From Bacteroidota bacterium (GTDB lineage Bacteria > Bacteroidota > Ignavibacteria > Ignavibacteriales > Ignavibacteriaceae), in NCBI GenBank assembly GCA_021824145.1, contig JAKALM010000018.1, forward strand, positions 1 to 64,000: 64,000 nt of DNA, written 5' to 3'. The translations under genes were made by a program, and so were the position numbers. Below the pieces are notes generated by a model. The model was given only the letters and a program-made list of their open reading frames with translations. It searched no databases and had not been told where the DNA came from. Position 1 is the first letter of the stretch; each line of letters opens with the position of its first letter. Of the stretch, positions 8,656-38,133 are shown piece by piece.

Positions 8656-9957
8656 ATGTCTGACAAAGAAAAAATAATTATTCCGCAAATCCCATTAGCA
8701 GAAAGAGTACGGCCAAAAACTTTAAGCGAATTTAGCGGGCAAAAATCTTTGTTAGGTGAAGGAAAACCAATCAGGCAAATGATAGAGAAAGACGCTATTA
8801 GCTCTTTCATTTTGTGGGGACCGCCAGGAACGGGCAAAACTACAATTGCAAAAATTATTGCCGAGCATACAAATTCAGATTTTTATCAATTAAATGCAGT
8901 TTCATCAGGTGTAAAAGATATTAGAGAAATAATTGAAATTGGTTCCCAAAATAAAAAGTTAAATAAAAAGACAATCCTTTTCATTGATGAAATTCATCGA
9001 TTCAATAAGGCACAGCAGGATGCACTTCTTCATTCTGTGGAAGCTGGATTAATAATTTTAATCGGTGCCACAACTGAAAATCCTTCATTCGAAGTTATTC
9101 CGGCTTTACGTTCGCGGGCAAGAGTTTTTATTCTAGAAGATTTATCAAAAGAAGATTTAATTTTTATTCTTGAATCAGCAATTAAGAAAGATGAATTTTT
9201 ATCATCACTAAAGATTGAAGAAATTGATATCGATTTTTTGATATACTTATCTGGTGGCGATGCAAGAGTTATGTTAAGTATTTTCGAAGCAGCAGTTATT
9301 CAAGAATTAAATTCCGATCAAATCAAGATAAACAAAGATGTGCTTGAAAATATTGTTCAAAAGAAAAATATAATTTATGATAAAGCCGGCGAAGAACATT
9401 ACAATATAATTTCAGCTTTTATTAAAAGTGTTCGCGGCAGTGATCCGGATGCAGCACTTTATTGGCTTGCTCGAATGCTTGAAGGTGGTGAAGATCCATT
9501 ATTTATTGCAAGAAGATTGGTGGTGCTTGCTGCTGAAGATATTGGAAATGCTTCCCCAAATGGGTTAGTTCTAGCAGAAGCAGCTTTTAGTGCAGTTGAT
9601 AAAATTGGAATGCCGGAAGCAAGAATAATTCTAGCTCAATGTACAACTTATCTTGCATCATCGCCTAAAAGCAACGCTGCATATTTAGGAATTGAGAATG
9701 CACTTTCTGATGTTAGAAATAAATCATTATTTCCGGTTCCAATACATTTAAGAAATGCGCCAACTAAATTGATGAAGTCAATCGGATACGGAAAAGAATA
9801 TAAATATCCGCACGATTTCGATAATCATTTTATTTTGGAAAATTATTTACCAGATGAATTGAAAAACGTTCAGTATTATTTTCCGACTGAAAACGGACAA
9901 GAAAAGAATTTGAAGGAACGACTAAAAGCTCTGTGGAAGAACCGGAAAAAATATTAA
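8656..9957 (+). CDS. rarA: Replication-associated recombination protein A (AAA+ ATPase)
   Basis: A 433-residue clamp-loader-like AAA+ ATPase (RarA/MgsA/WRNIP1) that acts at stalled replication forks. Walker A GPPGTGKT is at residues 55-62 and Walker B ILFIDEIH at 107-114. The ATTENPSF sensor segment and the C-terminal oligomerisation region with NAPTKLMK and GYKYPHD-like residues are family-typical. The stop codon overlaps the start of the next gene (TAATG). Confidence 0.95.
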   Translation: MSDKEKIIIPQIPLAERVRPKTLSEFSGQKSLLGEGKPIRQMIEKDAISSFILWGPPGTGKTTIAKIIAEHTNSDFYQLNAVSSGVKDIREIIEIGSQNKKLNKKTILFIDEIHRFNKAQQDALLHSVEAGLIILIGATTENPSFEVIPALRSRARVFILEDLSKEDLIFILESAIKKDEFLSSLKIEEIDIDFLIYLSGGDARVMLSIFEAAVIQELNSDQIKINKDVLENIVQKKNIIYDKAGEEHYNIISAFIKSVRGSDPDAALYWLARMLEGGEDPLFIARRLVVLAAEDIGNASPNGLVLAEAAFSAVDKIGMPEARIILAQCTTYLASSPKSNAAYLGIENALSDVRNKSLFPVPIHLRNAPTKLMKSIGYGKEYKYPHDFDNHFILENYLPDELKNVQYYFPTENGQEKNLKERLKALWKNRKKY

Positions 9958-33028: not shown

Positions 33029-33158
33029 GGGGCTGTCCCAAAAGTAATGTTGTCATCACGAGCGAAGAGAAGTGATCTGAATTTTGAATTAAAAACAAAA
33101 GATTGCTTCGTCGTTTCACTCCTCGCAATGACTTCTACTCTACTTTTTGGACAGCCCC
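33029..33158. mobile_element. 130-bp MITE-like element with GGGGCTGTCC terminal inverted repeats
   Basis: The ends GGGGCTGTCCCAAAAGTA (33029-33046) and its complement ending at 33158 match at 17 of 18 positions. Inside lies a second imperfect palindrome beginning GTCAT..CGAG and ending CTCGCAATGAC. There is no coding capacity and no clear target duplication. Ends like these resemble IS termini, so it is probably a non-autonomous derivative mobilised by a transposase elsewhere. Confidence 0.75.
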
Positions 33159-33261
33159 ATTATAATTAAAATGCTACTAATGATAAAGCAAGCATAGGAA
33201 TGATTTATTTGTTTTGAAGAATTGAAGGATAAGTAAATTAAATAGTTTGTCTTGTTAGATG

Positions 33262-33541
33262 AAATACTGGTTATAGTTTTCAAATGATTGGTACTGCCAA
33301 ATAAATTATAGGTTCAGTTTTTTAAATGACTGGTTCACCCAAAATTAATACTGGTTCAAGTCTTCAAATGACAGGTTCATCCGAAATTAATATAGGTTCA
33401 CGTTCACGAATCACAGGTTTGGATTTTCAAATGATTGGTACGGCTAAAATAAATACAAGTTCGTGTTTATAAATCACAGGTTTATGTAAAAAAAAGATTG
33501 GTTTAGGTTTATAAATGATGGGTTTTAGTTAAAAAAATACT
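33262..33541 (+). repeat. Non-coding array repeating every 21 bp (13 units)
   Basis: A GGT(T/A) motif, preceded by AAT.A(C/T)(T/A), begins at 33269, 33290, 33311, 33332, 33353, 33374, 33395, 33416, 33437, 33458 (as AGTT), 33479, 33500 and 33521, exactly 21 bp apart. The consensus is near AATGACTGGTTCA. The bases between motifs diverge, while phase is kept throughout. All frames examined carry stops, so it is not a coding repeat. It lies 120 bp upstream of an unknown gene. Confidence 0.88.
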
Positions 33542-33658
33542 TTTTGTAAAAAAAACAATAGATTTTTCCAAAAAGCAGCAAATTTTTTCTATATAATCAA
33601 AAGACATTTCCCGAAAAAGGGGAGTGAAAACAATCAACAAACAAAATGAGGAGTAGTT

Positions 33659-34342
33659 ATGGATAAAAGAATCAATAACCTAAAAGAGGAAGGCGCAGCC
33701 ACAATAAAAGCTATAGACGATAGGCGCGTTAAACTTGATGCGGATGGATTCCCGCCGGAAAAATACGAGGCACTTACCGCCGCCCAATCCGATCTTGATG
33801 CAAAAGATAAAGCACAAGTAAAAGCTGTAGAAGTTGGCGACAATAAGACAGTGGAAGAAAAAGAAATAGTATCTAATACGAAGGTGCTAATAGAAAGAAT
33901 TGGGAATGCAGTAAAAAGCGGATTTATGAATGACAAAAAAGTACAGAAGCTATTCAAGATAGATGAGAAAGTACCGAAGGCACTGGAGGCATTCAGATCT
34001 TACTGCGATTATTTAGCTGGAATGTGTACCGAGTACAAAACATCGTTATTAAAGAACGGATTGACGGAGGCAGATATTGACAGTATAAGTACAGCCTCGC
34101 AAAGAATGTACGATGCAAATACAGCCCAGCAGACTGCTAAGAAAAATCAGAAGGCAGCAACAGCGGCAAGAGATGAGGCAGCGAAAGTATCAAAGAGTGC
34201 GATAGAAGGAATTAGAAATTACATTAAAGCAAAGTATGCAGATGACCAGGAGATGTTAATAGCATTTGAGCCGGTATCAAAAAGCAATGGACGCGGCGGA
34301 AACGATACACCTCCGCCTGTAAATCCGGATCAGCCGAAATAA
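33659..34342 (+). CDS. Unknown helical/coiled-coil protein with Pro-rich C-terminus
   Basis: I do not recognise this 227-residue protein. It is strongly charged and alanine/lysine-rich, predicted almost wholly helical (about 1-205), with coiled-coil character around 140-185 (many A, K, Q, E), and ends in a low-complexity tail SNGRGGNDTPPPVNPDQPK. It has two cysteines (near 116 and 122), no signal peptide and no membrane helix. GAGGAG lies 6 nt before the ATG, a strong ribosome site. Its base composition is richer in G+C than the neighbours. It is enclosed by the 21-bp array upstream and a REP module 7 bp after its stop, hinting at an accessory gene. It may be structural or nucleoid-associated; this is a guess. 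Confidence 0.75.
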   Translation: MDKRINNLKEEGAATIKAIDDRRVKLDADGFPPEKYEALTAAQSDLDAKDKAQVKAVEVGDNKTVEEKEIVSNTKVLIERIGNAVKSGFMNDKKVQKLFKIDEKVPKALEAFRSYCDYLAGMCTEYKTSLLKNGLTEADIDSISTASQRMYDANTAQQTAKKNQKAATAARDEAAKVSKSAIEGIRNYIKAKYADDQEMLIAFEPVSKSNGRGGNDTPPPVNPDQPK

Positions 34343-34349
34343 ATATTTA

Positions 34350-34560
34350 AGGGCATGAATGCCCTCTATAATTTTTAATTTTGTTTTCTTTTGCCCAGCC
34401 GTGAACGGCTGGGTTATAGTATTACAAAGATGTTCACGATTTGTCTAGTCGTTCATGATTTGTCTAGTCGTTTACGATTAGCCCAGTCGTTCACGATTAG
34501 CCCAGTCGTTCACGACTGGGAAATAATAAATTAAAAAATATTTTATGCCATTCATGGCAT
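34350..34560. repeat. REP-like element pair 1 (A-B ... B'-C) left of the RAYT gene
   Basis: It is made of palindrome A AGGGCATGAATGCCCT (34350-34365), palindrome B CCCAGCCGTGAACGGCTGGG (34394-34413), a 19-bp tandem array with GTTCAC-type starts at 34432, 34451, 34470, 34489 and 34508, palindrome B' CCCAGTCGTTCACGACTGGG (34501-34520), and palindrome C ATGCCATTCATGGCAT (34545-34560). Loops are GA on the left and TC on the right, so B'-C is the inverted copy of A-B, as in BIMEs. Confidence 0.88.
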
Positions 34561-34592
34561 TCATAGAATAACTAATATTAGAAAGAAAAATA

Positions 34593-35042
34593 ATGGGACA
34601 CGTTTATTATAAAATCTGGATTCATTCTGTCTGGAGTACAAAAGAACGCACTCCCTGTTTAACAAAGGAAGTCAGAGATAAATTATTTAATCATATCTTA
34701 AAGAAAGCCGAAGAGAAGGGGCTGACAATAGAGGTGATTAACGGTTACACTGATCACTGTCATATATTATTGCCGCTCAATCCAAAATATGCAATAAGCG
34801 AAGTGCTGAATATTTTTAAGGGGGAATCTTCGCACTGGATAAACTCAGAGAAATTAACGAGTTCTCATTTTGCATGGCAGGAAGGATATTCTGCTTTTTC
34901 CGTAAGCGAATCTCAAGTTGAAAGAGTGAGGAATTATATAACGAACCAAGAGCAGCATCATAAAAAACAAAACTTTATTGATGAATTAAAAAATTTTTTG
35001 AAATTGCACAGGATTGAGTATGATGCAAAGTATTTGTCGTAA
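34593..35042 (+). CDS. REP-associated / IS200-type tyrosine (Y1 HUH) transposase
   Basis: A 149-residue Y1 transposase of the TnpA_REP/IS200 group. The HUH metal motif is HCH at residues 55-57, and the catalytic tyrosine is probably Tyr115 in VRNYITNQEQHH. The FAWQEGYSAFSVSES segment (93-107) is characteristic. The frame is intact. It lies exactly between two REP-like modules whose palindromes could be its single-stranded DNA substrates. There is no TnpB/IscB neighbour and no classical IS ends beyond the REPs, which favours a domesticated RAYT over a free IS200 copy. Confidence 0.88.
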   Translation: MGHVYYKIWIHSVWSTKERTPCLTKEVRDKLFNHILKKAEEKGLTIEVINGYTDHCHILLPLNPKYAISEVLNIFKGESSHWINSEKLTSSHFAWQEGYSAFSVSESQVERVRNYITNQEQHHKKQNFIDELKNFLKLHRIEYDAKYLS

Positions 35043-35047
35043 GTGTA

Positions 35048-35437
35048 AGGGCATGAATGCCCTCATGTGTTTTTAGTGTCAGTATCTTTTCCCAGCCGTG
35101 AACGGCTGGGGTAACGTCAACGGCTGGTGTAATGTGAATGGCTGAGGTAACGTGAATGTCATGGTTAATCGTGAACGATTGATGAACGACTGGATTAAAA
35201 TTTCATTTTAAATAATTATAATTCAGATATAGAATAGTCGTTCAAACTAGCCCGTTGTATACTCTAGCATAGTTGTTCACGCTAACCCAGTCGTTCACGA
35301 TTAGCTCAGTGTTCACGATTAGCTCAGTGTTCACGATTAGCCCAGTCGTTCACGATTAGCTCAGTGTTCACGATTAGCCCAGTCGTTCACGACTGGGAGA
35401 GATAAAAAAAGAAAAATTAATACGCCATTCATGGCGT
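35048..35437. repeat. REP-like element pair 2 right of the RAYT gene
   Basis: Palindrome A is at 35048-35063 and B at 35091-35110. An 18-bp array (starts at 35098, 35116, 35134 and 35152) decays into unique AT-rich DNA. A second array with GTTCAC starts at 35275, 35293, 35311, 35329, 35348, 35366 and 35385 (steps of 18 or 19 bp) leads to B' (35378-35397) and C ACGCCATTCATGGCGT (35422-35437). The arrangement repeats that of element 1. Confidence 0.88.
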
Positions 35438-35486
35438 TAAATAATTAAATGAATTTAGAAAAATATTTTGGTTTGTTTTAAGAGCA

Positions 35487-35690
35487 AGGGCATGAATGCC
35501 CTTAAGTATTTTGAGTATTGTTTTCTTTTCCCAGCCGTGAACGGCTGGGGTAACGTCAACGGCTGGGGTAAAGTGAATGGTTGGGTTAATGTGAATGGTT
35601 GAGGTAACGTCAACGGCTGGGGTAAAGTGAATGGCCAGGGTAAAGTGAATGGTTGGGTTAATGTGAATGGTTGGAGTAGAGGTGGGTTGT
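35487..35690. repeat. REP-like element 3 with 18-bp tandem array (left half only)
   Basis: Palindrome A (35487-35502) and palindrome B (35530-35549) are followed by eight 18-bp units starting at 35537, 35555, 35573, 35591, 35609, 35627, 35645 and 35663 (GTGAACGGCTGGGGTAAC type). There is no matching B'-C half; the next DNA runs into a truncated gene. From 35691 to 35860 no gene is seen. Confidence 0.85.
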
Positions 35691-36051: not shown

Positions 36052-38133
36052 ATGAGAAAAAATTCACAATTATTTTTAGTTTTTTTTTATTTATCATTAA
36101 CTACAATAATAACAAATGCACAATGGGTGCAAACTAATGGGCCATATGGAGGATCAATTACTTCACTTAAATTATGCGGTAATAATCTTTTTGTTGGAAG
36201 TATTGCAGGAGGTGGTGTTTATCTAACTACAGATAATGGTTCAAGTTGGACTGCTGTTAATAATGGTTTAACCAATGCCTATGTTTACTCACTTGCTGCA
36301 AACGGAAAAAATATTTTTGCTGGAACCGGTGGGGGCGGCGTATTTCTTTCGACCAACAATGGTTCAAGTTGGACTGCTGTTAATAATGGTTTAACTAATG
36401 CCATGGTTTACTCACTTGCTGCAAACGGAAATAATATTTTTGCTGGAACCGGTGGGGGCGGCGTATTTCTTTCAACCAACAATGGTTCAAGTTGGACACA
36501 GGTTAATAAAGGGTTGATTAATAAAACTGTAATATCATTCGCTGTAATTAGTGATAATCTTTTTGCTGGAACTAATGATGGAGTTTATCTCTCAACCAAC
36601 AATGGTTCAAGTTGGACTGCTGTTAATAATGGTTTAACAAATACCAGTGTTAATTCACTTTGCAGTAGCAACAACAACCTTTTTGCTGGAACTTGGGGTG
36701 GGGGGGTATACATATCTACTGATTATGGTTCAAGTTGGACTGCTGTTAATAATGGCTTAACCAATGCCTATGTTTACTCACTTGCTGCAAACGGAACAAA
36801 TATTTTCGCTGGAACTCTGAATGGAGCATATCTTTCAAATAATAATGGTACAACATGGACACCAATTAATAGTGGTTTGCCAAATACCCGCGTTACTTCA
36901 TTTGCGGTCAACGGAAATATCCTTTTTGCTGGGACATATTTAGGTATTTATTTATCAACAAATAGCGGTATAAGCTGGTTGGATATTAATAAAGGTTTCA
37001 TAAATACAAGTATCTCTTCATTTGTCGCTAGCGGAACTAATCTTTTTGCTGGAACTACGAATGGAGTTTATCTTTCAACCAACAATGGTTCAAGTTGGAT
37101 TCAAGTTAATAATGGTTTATCATCTCCTTTTATTTCTTCTCTTGCTGCAAACGGAACAAATATTTTCGCTGGAACTGGGAGCGGCGTATTTCTTTCGACC
37201 AACAATGGTTCAAGTTGGACCGCTGTTAATAATGGTTTAACCAATGGCTATGTTTACTCACTTGCTGCAAACGGAACAAATATTTTCGCTGGAACTTGGA
37301 GCGGCGTATTTCTTTCGACCAACAATGGTTCAAGTTGGACTGCTGTTAATAATGGTTTAACCAGTACCTCTGTTTACTCATTTGCTGCAAACGGAAAAAA
37401 TATTTTCGCTGGAGCCAATGGGGGCGGCGTATTTCTTTCGACCAACAATGGTTCAAGTTGGACTCAAGTTAATAATGGTTTATCAAACTTACAAATATTT
37501 TCTCTTGCTGTAAGTGGAACAAATATTATCGCTGGAAGTCTGAATGGAGCATATCTTTCAACCAACAATGGTTCAAGTTGGACTGCTGTTAATAATGGTT
37601 TAACAAATACCAGTGTTAATTCACTTTGCAGTAGCAACAACAACCTTTTTGCTGGAACTAATTATGGGGTTTATCTTTCAACCAACAATGGTTCAAGTTG
37701 GACTCAAGTTAATGAAGGTCTAGGAAATAATCCTATTTGGTCGTTTATTGTTTATGGAATAAATATTTTTGCAGGCACAGATCATGGTGTTTGGAAAAGA
37801 CCACTTTCAGAAATGATAACTGCTGTTAATGATCAAAATAAAGATTTGCCGACAAGTTTTTCTTTGCAACAGAACTATCCTAACCCCTTCAACCCAACAA
37901 CCTCAATTAAGTATGAATTGCCTGCGGCGAGTTATGTAAAAGTTTGTATTTATAATTTGCTGGGAGAAGTTGTTTCAACATTAGTAGACGGTAATCAGAA
38001 TGCAGGTTATTATACAGCAAACTGGAATGCTAATAATGTACCAAGCGGAATTTATTTTTACACAATCTATTCAAAACCGCTGGACGGCTCAAAGGAATTC
38101 CGTGATGTAAAGAAAATGATTTTACTGAAGTGA
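36052..38133 (+). CDS. Secreted Asp-box/YCF48-like repeat protein with type A T9SS sorting domain
   Basis: A 693-residue exported protein. After a signal peptide (about 1-23, ending TNAQ) come 13 repeats of 40-44 residues, each with NNGSSWTAVNNGL or a close variant, the BNR/Asp-box motif of beta-propellers. From about residue 600 there is a C-terminal sorting domain: SFSLQQNYPNPFNP, LGEVVSTLV, SGIYFYTI and KKMILLK. It should leave the cell by type IX secretion and be anchored or released outside. Several repeat units are nearly identical at DNA level. AAGGAATT precedes the ATG. Ligand unknown. Confidence 0.92.
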   Translation: MRKNSQLFLVFFYLSLTTIITNAQWVQTNGPYGGSITSLKLCGNNLFVGSIAGGGVYLTTDNGSSWTAVNNGLTNAYVYSLAANGKNIFAGTGGGGVFLSTNNGSSWTAVNNGLTNAMVYSLAANGNNIFAGTGGGGVFLSTNNGSSWTQVNKGLINKTVISFAVISDNLFAGTNDGVYLSTNNGSSWTAVNNGLTNTSVNSLCSSNNNLFAGTWGGGVYISTDYGSSWTAVNNGLTNAYVYSLAANGTNIFAGTLNGAYLSNNNGTTWTPINSGLPNTRVTSFAVNGNILFAGTYLGIYLSTNSGISWLDINKGFINTSISSFVASGTNLFAGTTNGVYLSTNNGSSWIQVNNGLSSPFISSLAANGTNIFAGTGSGVFLSTNNGSSWTAVNNGLTNGYVYSLAANGTNIFAGTWSGVFLSTNNGSSWTAVNNGLTSTSVYSFAANGKNIFAGANGGGVFLSTNNGSSWTQVNNGLSNLQIFSLAVSGTNIIAGSLNGAYLSTNNGSSWTAVNNGLTNTSVNSLCSSNNNLFAGTNYGVYLSTNNGSSWTQVNEGLGNNPIWSFIVYGINIFAGTDHGVWKRPLSEMITAVNDQNKDLPTSFSLQQNYPNPFNPTTSIKYELPAASYVKVCIYNLLGEVVSTLVDGNQNAGYYTANWNANNVPSGIYFYTIYSKPLDGSKEFRDVKKMILLK

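What the first reader, a model, noticed from the sequence alone, without database searches (positions are those of the whole stretch)
33262..33541. Thirteen non-coding repeats in perfect 21-bp register
A GGTT-centred motif recurs every 21 bp without a single slip for over 250 bp while the bases between diverge. 21 bp equals two helical turns, so all motifs face one side of the DNA. No reading frame is open, so protein-level selection does not explain the phase. It stands upstream of an unknown helical protein gene, which could be its binding partner (inference).
Basis: partly seen in the sequence, partly recalled or inferred. Interest (0 to 1): 0.72.

Follow-up and report, generated by a model that had tools for sequence, protein, structure and literature searches.

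The report
Helix-phased DNA array beside PQLLE-like gene
A non-coding stretch of DNA built from a pattern that repeats every 21 letters, exactly two turns of the double helix, sits beside a gene of unknown function, and distant relatives of that gene in several bacterial phyla carry the same 21-letter spacing with different letters, which points to an undescribed DNA-protein device.

Summary
The array is real: 13 units, 33269-33541, no slip, stops in all six frames. It is not a local oddity. Relatives of the next gene (33659-34342, distantly related to the NCBIfam 'PQLLE family') carry a 21-bp-period array in 57 of 72 fetched loci (56 of 71 distinct), in Ignavibacteria, other Bacteroidota, Cyanobacteria and Chloroflexota by record title; 21 is the top period in 56. 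Unit sequences differ between loci and, in three ortholog pairs, drift at about the synonymous rate, but spacing is held: 54 arrays show one central indel, at an assembly gap, with 107 of 108 simulated indels detected. Conserved positions within units recur every 10.5 bp (z about 10; no codon period), so the constraint seems to be on the face of double-stranded DNA. Tests for coding heptads, RNA structure and palindromes gave no general support. Best reading: a cis DNA platform bound on one face, every two turns, by a cooperative protein assembly, possibly the neighbouring product; binding is untested, and 24 of 37 family proteins have a pI below 7. Decaying minisatellite is unlikely. My searches found no description.

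The parts
33269..33541 (+). core of the array: 13 units of 21 bp, two alternating unit types (42-bp higher-order repeat)
33199..33268 (+). degenerate upstream units in the same register
   Evidence: L002 1041 onwards = window 33199
33542..33574 (+). degenerate T/A-rich tail with the only slip inferred (2 bp); end as in the fitted path
33648..33653 (+). ribosome-binding-site-like GAGGAG before the start codon
   Evidence: read; similar AGGAG in relatives
33659..34342 (+). gene of a 227-aa, probably all-helical protein (helicity judged from sequence, no model), distant relative of NCBIfam NF052641 'PQLLE family protein' (30.9 bits, cut-off 80), with a G/P-rich tail

Best explanation
The array is a cis-acting double-stranded DNA site of about 300 bp whose information is mainly helical phase rather than sequence. 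Each 21-bp unit is two turns of B-DNA, the smallest whole number of base pairs that is also a whole number of turns at 10.5 bp per turn, so a tandem array that must keep one face towards a protein surface over tens of turns settles on 21. A protein assembly binds one face cooperatively along it. SHOWN: the array, its linkage to the gene family, the spacing constraint, the 10.5-bp spacing of conserved positions in the pooled family, absence of a codon signal and of a general RNA-structure signal. INFERRED: that a protein binds; that it is the product of the linked gene, or a complex with it, working in cis (autoregulation of the gene or building a nucleoprotein body). My odds: constraint on double-stranded DNA geometry about 0.75; neighbouring product a direct or indirect partner about 0.45; that product touching the DNA itself about 0.3.
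For: Linkage: 57 of 72 family loci (56 of 71 distinct) show a 21-bp peak, 21 being the top period of 8-32 in 56. 20 of 20 family context stretches (chosen after arrays had been seen at many of them) and the window show it, against 2 of 20 control stretches of 20 kb from family-bearing genomes, one of the two beside a probable distant family member. Register: in 54 arrays (53 distinct; L047 and L100 are one locus) 823.5 units carry 5132 differences from consensus (30% of 17294 bases) and 14 inferred indels, one in the central 60%, at an assembly gap; 107 of 108 simulated indels were detected. Sequence lost, period kept: unit similarity falls to background below about 60% protein identity while the period remains. 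Face: information power at 10.5 bp is 2.44 in 47 non-redundant arrays, z 9.9, and z 6.3 when blocks of 3 columns are kept; the codon harmonic is 0.65, while simulated coding heptads give 5.94. Purine-to-pyrimidine steps also recur at 10.5 bp (z 7.7). Side: 41 of 45 arrays lie upstream of the gene.
Against: 24 of 37 proteins have a pI below 7 (some start codons were guessed) and no DNA-binding family was matched. Four of 45 arrays lie downstream and some upstream ones 0.5-1.2 kb away, which sits badly with simple promoter control. One strong array (L112) and one weak one (L073 near 13485) have no recognised family gene beside them. 15 of 72 loci show no array by the threshold; five of these have under 400 bp before the contig ends. 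In three ortholog pairs the arrays hold 5 gaps per 126 differences (one a whole unit, one at a segment end I chose) against 5 per 80 in their flanks, which is not clearly fewer. No palindromy, no strong shared consensus. The window's own array lacks the 10.5-bp harmonic, which is the largest one in only 20 of 54 arrays. No structure could be predicted.
Confidence: 0.5

Rival explanations
1. Decaying minisatellite: a chance tandem duplication, without function, that happens to keep its period.
For: Sequence drifts at about the synonymous rate in three orthologous pairs (array vs four-fold sites 0.235 vs 0.22, 0.178 vs 0.27, 0.027 vs 0.07); gaps per difference in those few pairs are not clearly fewer in arrays than in flanks; array edges degenerate.
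Against: The same 21-bp period beside one gene family in several phyla with unrelated units; one central indel, at an assembly gap, in 54 arrays with 30% difference from consensus and tested power; the REP-like arrays next door have periods 18-19.
Confidence: 0.07
2. Remnant or live coding sequence of a heptad (coiled-coil) repeat protein: 21 bp is 7 codons and a/d positions give a 10.5-bp rhythm.
For: Explains 21, indel depletion and a T/A rhythm; 24 of 45 arrays have at least one open frame; some translate into heptad-like ORFs.
Against: No codon-phase difference in column variability (pooled spread below random); harmonic 7 is 0.62-0.65 against 5.94 in simulated coding heptads, and lags 3, 6 and 9 are not raised; mean minimum of stops 1.36 against 1.64 after column permutation, only a little lower; differences of the pair L009/L015 fall evenly on codon positions (27, 21, 24); 9 or more stops in every frame in the window.
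Confidence: 0.07
3. Repetitive non-coding RNA transcribed from the array, with the helical protein as its partner.
For: Arrays lie mostly upstream on the gene side and could be in its leader; two of 45 arrays (L041, L065) fold much better than their controls on both strands.
Against: No general excess of RNA folding on either strand (mean z -0.36 and -0.26 in 45 arrays, 12 controls each); no Rfam match at gathering score in 15 loci; 21 and 10.5 are periods of B-DNA, not of A-form RNA (general knowledge); four of 45 arrays downstream.
Confidence: 0.15
4. Phased intrinsic curvature: the array is a static bend or enhancer for the gene's promoter and needs no dedicated partner.
For: TT and AA each recur at 10.5 bp (z 4.0 and 3.8); mostly upstream.
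Against: AA/TT taken together, the usual curvature signal, shows no 10.5-bp excess (z 1.0); GC-rich arrays such as those of L006 and L100 exist; some arrays are far away or downstream. No curvature model was computed.
Confidence: 0.13

Closest known systems
Iteron arrays of plasmid and secondary-chromosome replication origins (recalled)
   Same: Tandem direct repeats about two helical turns apart, bound on one face, next to the gene of the binder
   Different: No Rep initiator recognised beside it; no match in 72,556 plasmid records for three protein queries; 9-32 units with no fixed sequence
parC centromeres of ParMRC-type partition systems (search listing only; details recalled)
   Same: Array of short direct repeats that organises an adaptor protein into a regular assembly
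   Different: No actin-like or Walker ATPase recurs beside it in 21 contexts; several paralogues per genome in some genomes
NCBIfam NF052641 PQLLE family protein
   Same: Homologous proteins; the three loci over the cut-off (L046, L047, L055) also carry a 21-bp peak, weak in L046
   Different: The window's protein scores 30.9 against a cut-off of 80; I saw only the model's name, not its description
Satellite DNA of eukaryotic centromeres (recalled)
   Same: Unit length conserved while unit sequence turns over
   Different: About 300 bp in bacteria; apparently locked to the DNA helix, not to nucleosomes

Membership tests
NCBIfam NF052641 PQLLE family | score at or above the curated cut-off of 80 bits | tested here: not met
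   30.9 bits for the window protein
NCBIfam NF052641 PQLLE family | homology over the domain | tested here: met
   E 2.1e-7 over residues 26-201; all 9 members of A1, the window's included, match at E 0.1 or better, best 5.3e-13
Iteron replication origin | adjacent replication initiator gene | tested here: not met
Iteron replication origin | repeats spaced at two helical turns | tested here: met
   21 bp, one central slip at an assembly gap in 54 arrays
ParMRC or ParABS partition site | cognate NTPase gene next to the array | tested here: not met
   in 21 contexts the family gene recurs in 15; next come proteins sharing a secretion tail (8) and clusters of 3
CRISPR array | conserved repeat separated by unique spacers | tested here: not met
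   contiguous 21-bp units without spacers
Coding heptad repeat | codon periodicity and an open frame | tested here: not met
   an open frame exists in 24 of 45 arrays but not in the window
One-face protein-binding array | protein footprints at 10.5- or 21-bp spacing | not testable with these tools
   needs footprinting

The most novel reading that the evidence does not exclude
A widespread bacterial nucleoprotein module in which the DNA partner is recognised by helical phase: a family of helical proteins (PQLLE superfamily, some with fibronectin-like tails) assembles, alone or with partners, along one face of a 180-670 bp array whose main conserved property is a repeat of exactly two helical turns; selection preserves the geometry and lets the letters drift.
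Probability: 0.3. Interest if true: 0.95.

Novelty: categorically new. Interest (0 to 1): 0.82.

Why it matters
If right, it is a DNA element conserved in geometry instead of sequence, found beside one uncharacterised protein family in at least three bacterial phyla (Bacteroidota with Ignavibacteria, Cyanobacteria, Chloroflexota, by record titles), and not findable by sequence similarity. It gives a first experimental handle on the PQLLE family and a clean natural test of how much of a protein-DNA interaction can be pure helical phasing.

Tried and rejected
Minisatellite decay, coding heptads, RNA structure, palindromic dimer sites and A-tract phasing were tested and are not supported as general accounts. 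A shared unit motif was sought by alignment of circular profiles of 45 arrays: weak T/C-rich halves about 11 bp apart, 3.79 bits against 2.7-3.0 in six permutations; above chance but too weak to name a site. Defence association: neighbours of family genes gave 95 PADLOC families at E 1e-10 among 104 proteins against 22 among 107 control proteins; 25 of the 95 were shown, and among these one Cas1 and a few methyltransferases fill many rows, so nothing is claimed. Rfam at gathering score: 0 matches in 15 loci. Solved structures: best E 0.037 with the profile A3, none with L108 or L046. Phages (window protein), plasmids (window, L091 and L108 proteins) and viral contigs (A2): none. Literature: the answers were read as listings with abstract beginnings; no paper was opened; 'PQLLE' occurs in 0 papers of that library.

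A first parity test of the 42-bp alternation gave 1 of 54 at p below 0.01; a lag-based test gave 5 of 54 at p below 0.01 and 12 of 54 at p below 0.05.

Full report
OBSERVATION. The 13 units of 21 bp at 33269-33541 are there, in strict register, with GGT in 12 of 13. Identity at lags 21, 42 and 63 (0.51, 0.63, 0.54) lies far above 2000 Markov resamplings (mean 0.29, maximum 0.42). All frames are closed. Units alternate in two types (lag 42 above lag 21, p 0.005).

THE LINKED GENE. The 227-aa product of 33659-34342 has no Pfam match above cut-off but is a distant relative of NCBIfam NF052641, 'PQLLE family protein' (30.9 bits, E 2.1e-7, cut-off 80; all 9 members of alignment A1, the window's included, match). 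The name fits the motif PQLLE.LG in closer members (that the name comes from it is my inference). Matches were found in 8 of 59 genomes of the kinship search, 11 of 395 genomes of the phylum by profile and 9 of 198 by the NCBIfam model, the own genome counted in each; many of the weaker ones have E-values of 1e-7 to 1e-3 for one genome. The species collection gave 16 loci, titled Cyanobacteria, Chloroflexota, Bacteroidetes, Ignavibacteria, Rhodothermales, and one contig filed under both KSB1 and Phycisphaerae, so that its owner is uncertain. The Ignavibacteriae record is the same contig as one of G050, a genome of the window's own order. Nothing was found in phage records, plasmids or viral contigs. 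Several relatives carry C-terminal segments that look like fibronectin type III or other beta domains (by eye, and Pfam did not confirm them for the two scanned, L024 and L026).

MOST RELATIVES HAVE AN ARRAY OF THEIR OWN. By one fixed rule (mean identity at 21, 42 and 63 bp minus the mean over lags 8-99, above 0.18 anywhere in the fetched locus) 57 of 72 loci show a 21-bp peak, and 21 is the top period from 8 to 32 in 56 of them. The 15 misses include five with under 400 bp before the contig end (L016, L018, L039, L044, L049), L051, where 14 and 28 bp score higher, and L103, whose spacing is irregular, 20-21 bp by eye. Control: 20 stretches of 20 kb taken from family-bearing genomes away from known family genes held two 21-bp arrays and one 12-bp array; 20 of 20 context stretches, chosen after arrays had been seen at many of them, and the window held a 21-bp array. 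One control array (L108) stands beside a 247-aa protein that is a probable distant relative (profile comparison probability 81%, E 1.2e-5, against A3; none against A2); of five places found for that protein's relatives three also have 21-bp arrays, the other two being short fragments. The other control array (L112) has no family gene that I could recognise beside it.

SEQUENCE DRIFTS, SPACING HARDLY. Array units resemble each other between loci only when the proteins are at least about 60% identical (12 pairs, mean similarity 0.61 on the same strand, 0.31 flipped); below that they are at background (41 proteins). In three orthologous pairs the arrays diverge about as fast as, or slower than, four-fold sites of the gene (0.235 vs 0.22; 0.178 vs 0.27; 0.027 vs 0.07). 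In 54 arrays (823.5 units, 5132 differences from consensus in 17294 bases) 14 indels were inferred, 13 of them outside the central 60% and the remaining one at a run of N in L035. The same procedure found 107 of 108 simulated single indels. L009 and L015 differ internally by exactly one unit of 21 bp. Against this, L011/L012 show three 1-bp gaps, and over the three pairs arrays have 5 gaps per 126 differences against 5 per 80 in flanks; these few pairs alone would not prove a lock. The arrays were chosen by periodicity, which favours regular ones; this cannot create the absence of central slips within long arrays, but it leaves irregular ones such as L103 out.

THE LOCK SEEMS TO BE ON THE DNA HELIX. 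If the register came from codons, variability should follow codon positions. It does not: pooled spread lies below random and the 3-bp harmonic of column information is 0.62-0.65, against 5.94 in simulated coding heptads. Instead the information peaks at the 10.5-bp harmonic: 2.44 in 47 non-redundant arrays, z 9.9, and z 6.3 against a null that keeps blocks of three columns; the nine arrays of named records (one of them a repeat of L047) give 3.26, with 0.66 and 0.59 at the neighbouring harmonics. Lag 10 (equal to 11 on the circle) is raised (z 3.6) and lags 4-7 are low, where coding heptads would raise 3, 6 and 9. Purine-to-pyrimidine steps also recur every 10.5 bp (z 7.7), whereas AA/TT together do not (z 1.0), which argues against plain A-tract curvature. 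In the window's own array this harmonic is not raised (0.88), and it is the largest in 20 of 54 arrays; the claim is about the family. RNA folding shows no general excess, with two strong outliers, L041 and L065, and units are not palindromic.

MECHANISM. 10.5 bp per turn cannot be tiled by whole base pairs; 21 bp is the smallest tile that keeps phase. That gives a simple reason why unrelated units in distant bacteria share one period. I infer a cooperative protein assembly along one face of about 300 bp (median 298 bp, 14 units). The linked gene is the obvious candidate partner: it recurs in 15 of 21 contexts by direct similarity, ahead of proteins sharing a secretion tail (8) and a transposase (3), and 41 of 45 arrays lie on its upstream side. 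But 24 of 37 of these proteins have a pI below 7, 12 above, which leaves open that it joins through another protein, or that the array only controls it.

COMPARISON. Same-face spacing and array form recall iterons and parC sites, but I saw no initiator, no partition NTPase and no plasmid match. PQLLE is a named family; I saw no function for it. Literature searches (listings only) gave no description of such arrays; subscription journals and preprints were not covered.

LIMITS. No structure was obtained. Genomes are mostly draft assemblies, many of unnamed species or metagenome bins, whose titles may misname the organism. The z-scores treat arrays as independent after removal of close pairs only.

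Noticed in passing
window 34593-35042: Y1/IS200-like transposase, by its surroundings of REP-associated type, directly downstream; a Y1_Tnp gene neighbours the family gene in 3 of 21 contexts.
   Followed up: partly
window 34432-35678: Four clusters of 18-19-bp repeats containing palindromic CCCAGYCGTTCACG-like arms around that transposase, with mixed 18/19-bp spacing, unlike the 21-bp array.
   Followed up: partly
window 33029-33158: MITE-like element with 18-bp terminal inverted repeats (GGGGCTGTCC...GGACAGCCCC) just upstream of the array.
   Followed up: no
L035 (own genome C7, about 52.7-53.2 kb): Second family gene with a different 21-bp array that contains an assembly gap of N.
   Followed up: partly
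L112:11643-11936: Strong 21-bp array with no recognised family gene beside it, between a hydrolase-like and an outer-membrane-like ORF.
   Followed up: partly
L073:13380-13700: Weak second 21-bp periodicity (0.22) about 5 kb from the family gene, no family gene beside it.
   Followed up: partly
L108:12002-12745: 247-aa protein ending in KSVFGATNPQYKQISGLKFINLQN, beside a 21-bp array and after a SIR2-like gene (my reading); may define a second array-linked family in Bacteroidota.
   Followed up: partly
L085:8062-8388 and 9026-9550: Two separate 21-bp arrays ahead of one family gene.
   Followed up: no
window 36052-38133: 693-aa protein of BNR/sortilin-like repeats with a type IX secretion tail.
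   Followed up: no
neighbours of family genes (A7): Among 104 neighbours 3 match 23S-rRNA-intervening-sequence proteins, 2 dUTPase and 2 GmrSD (25 of 146 families shown); no Pfam control was run.
   Followed up: no
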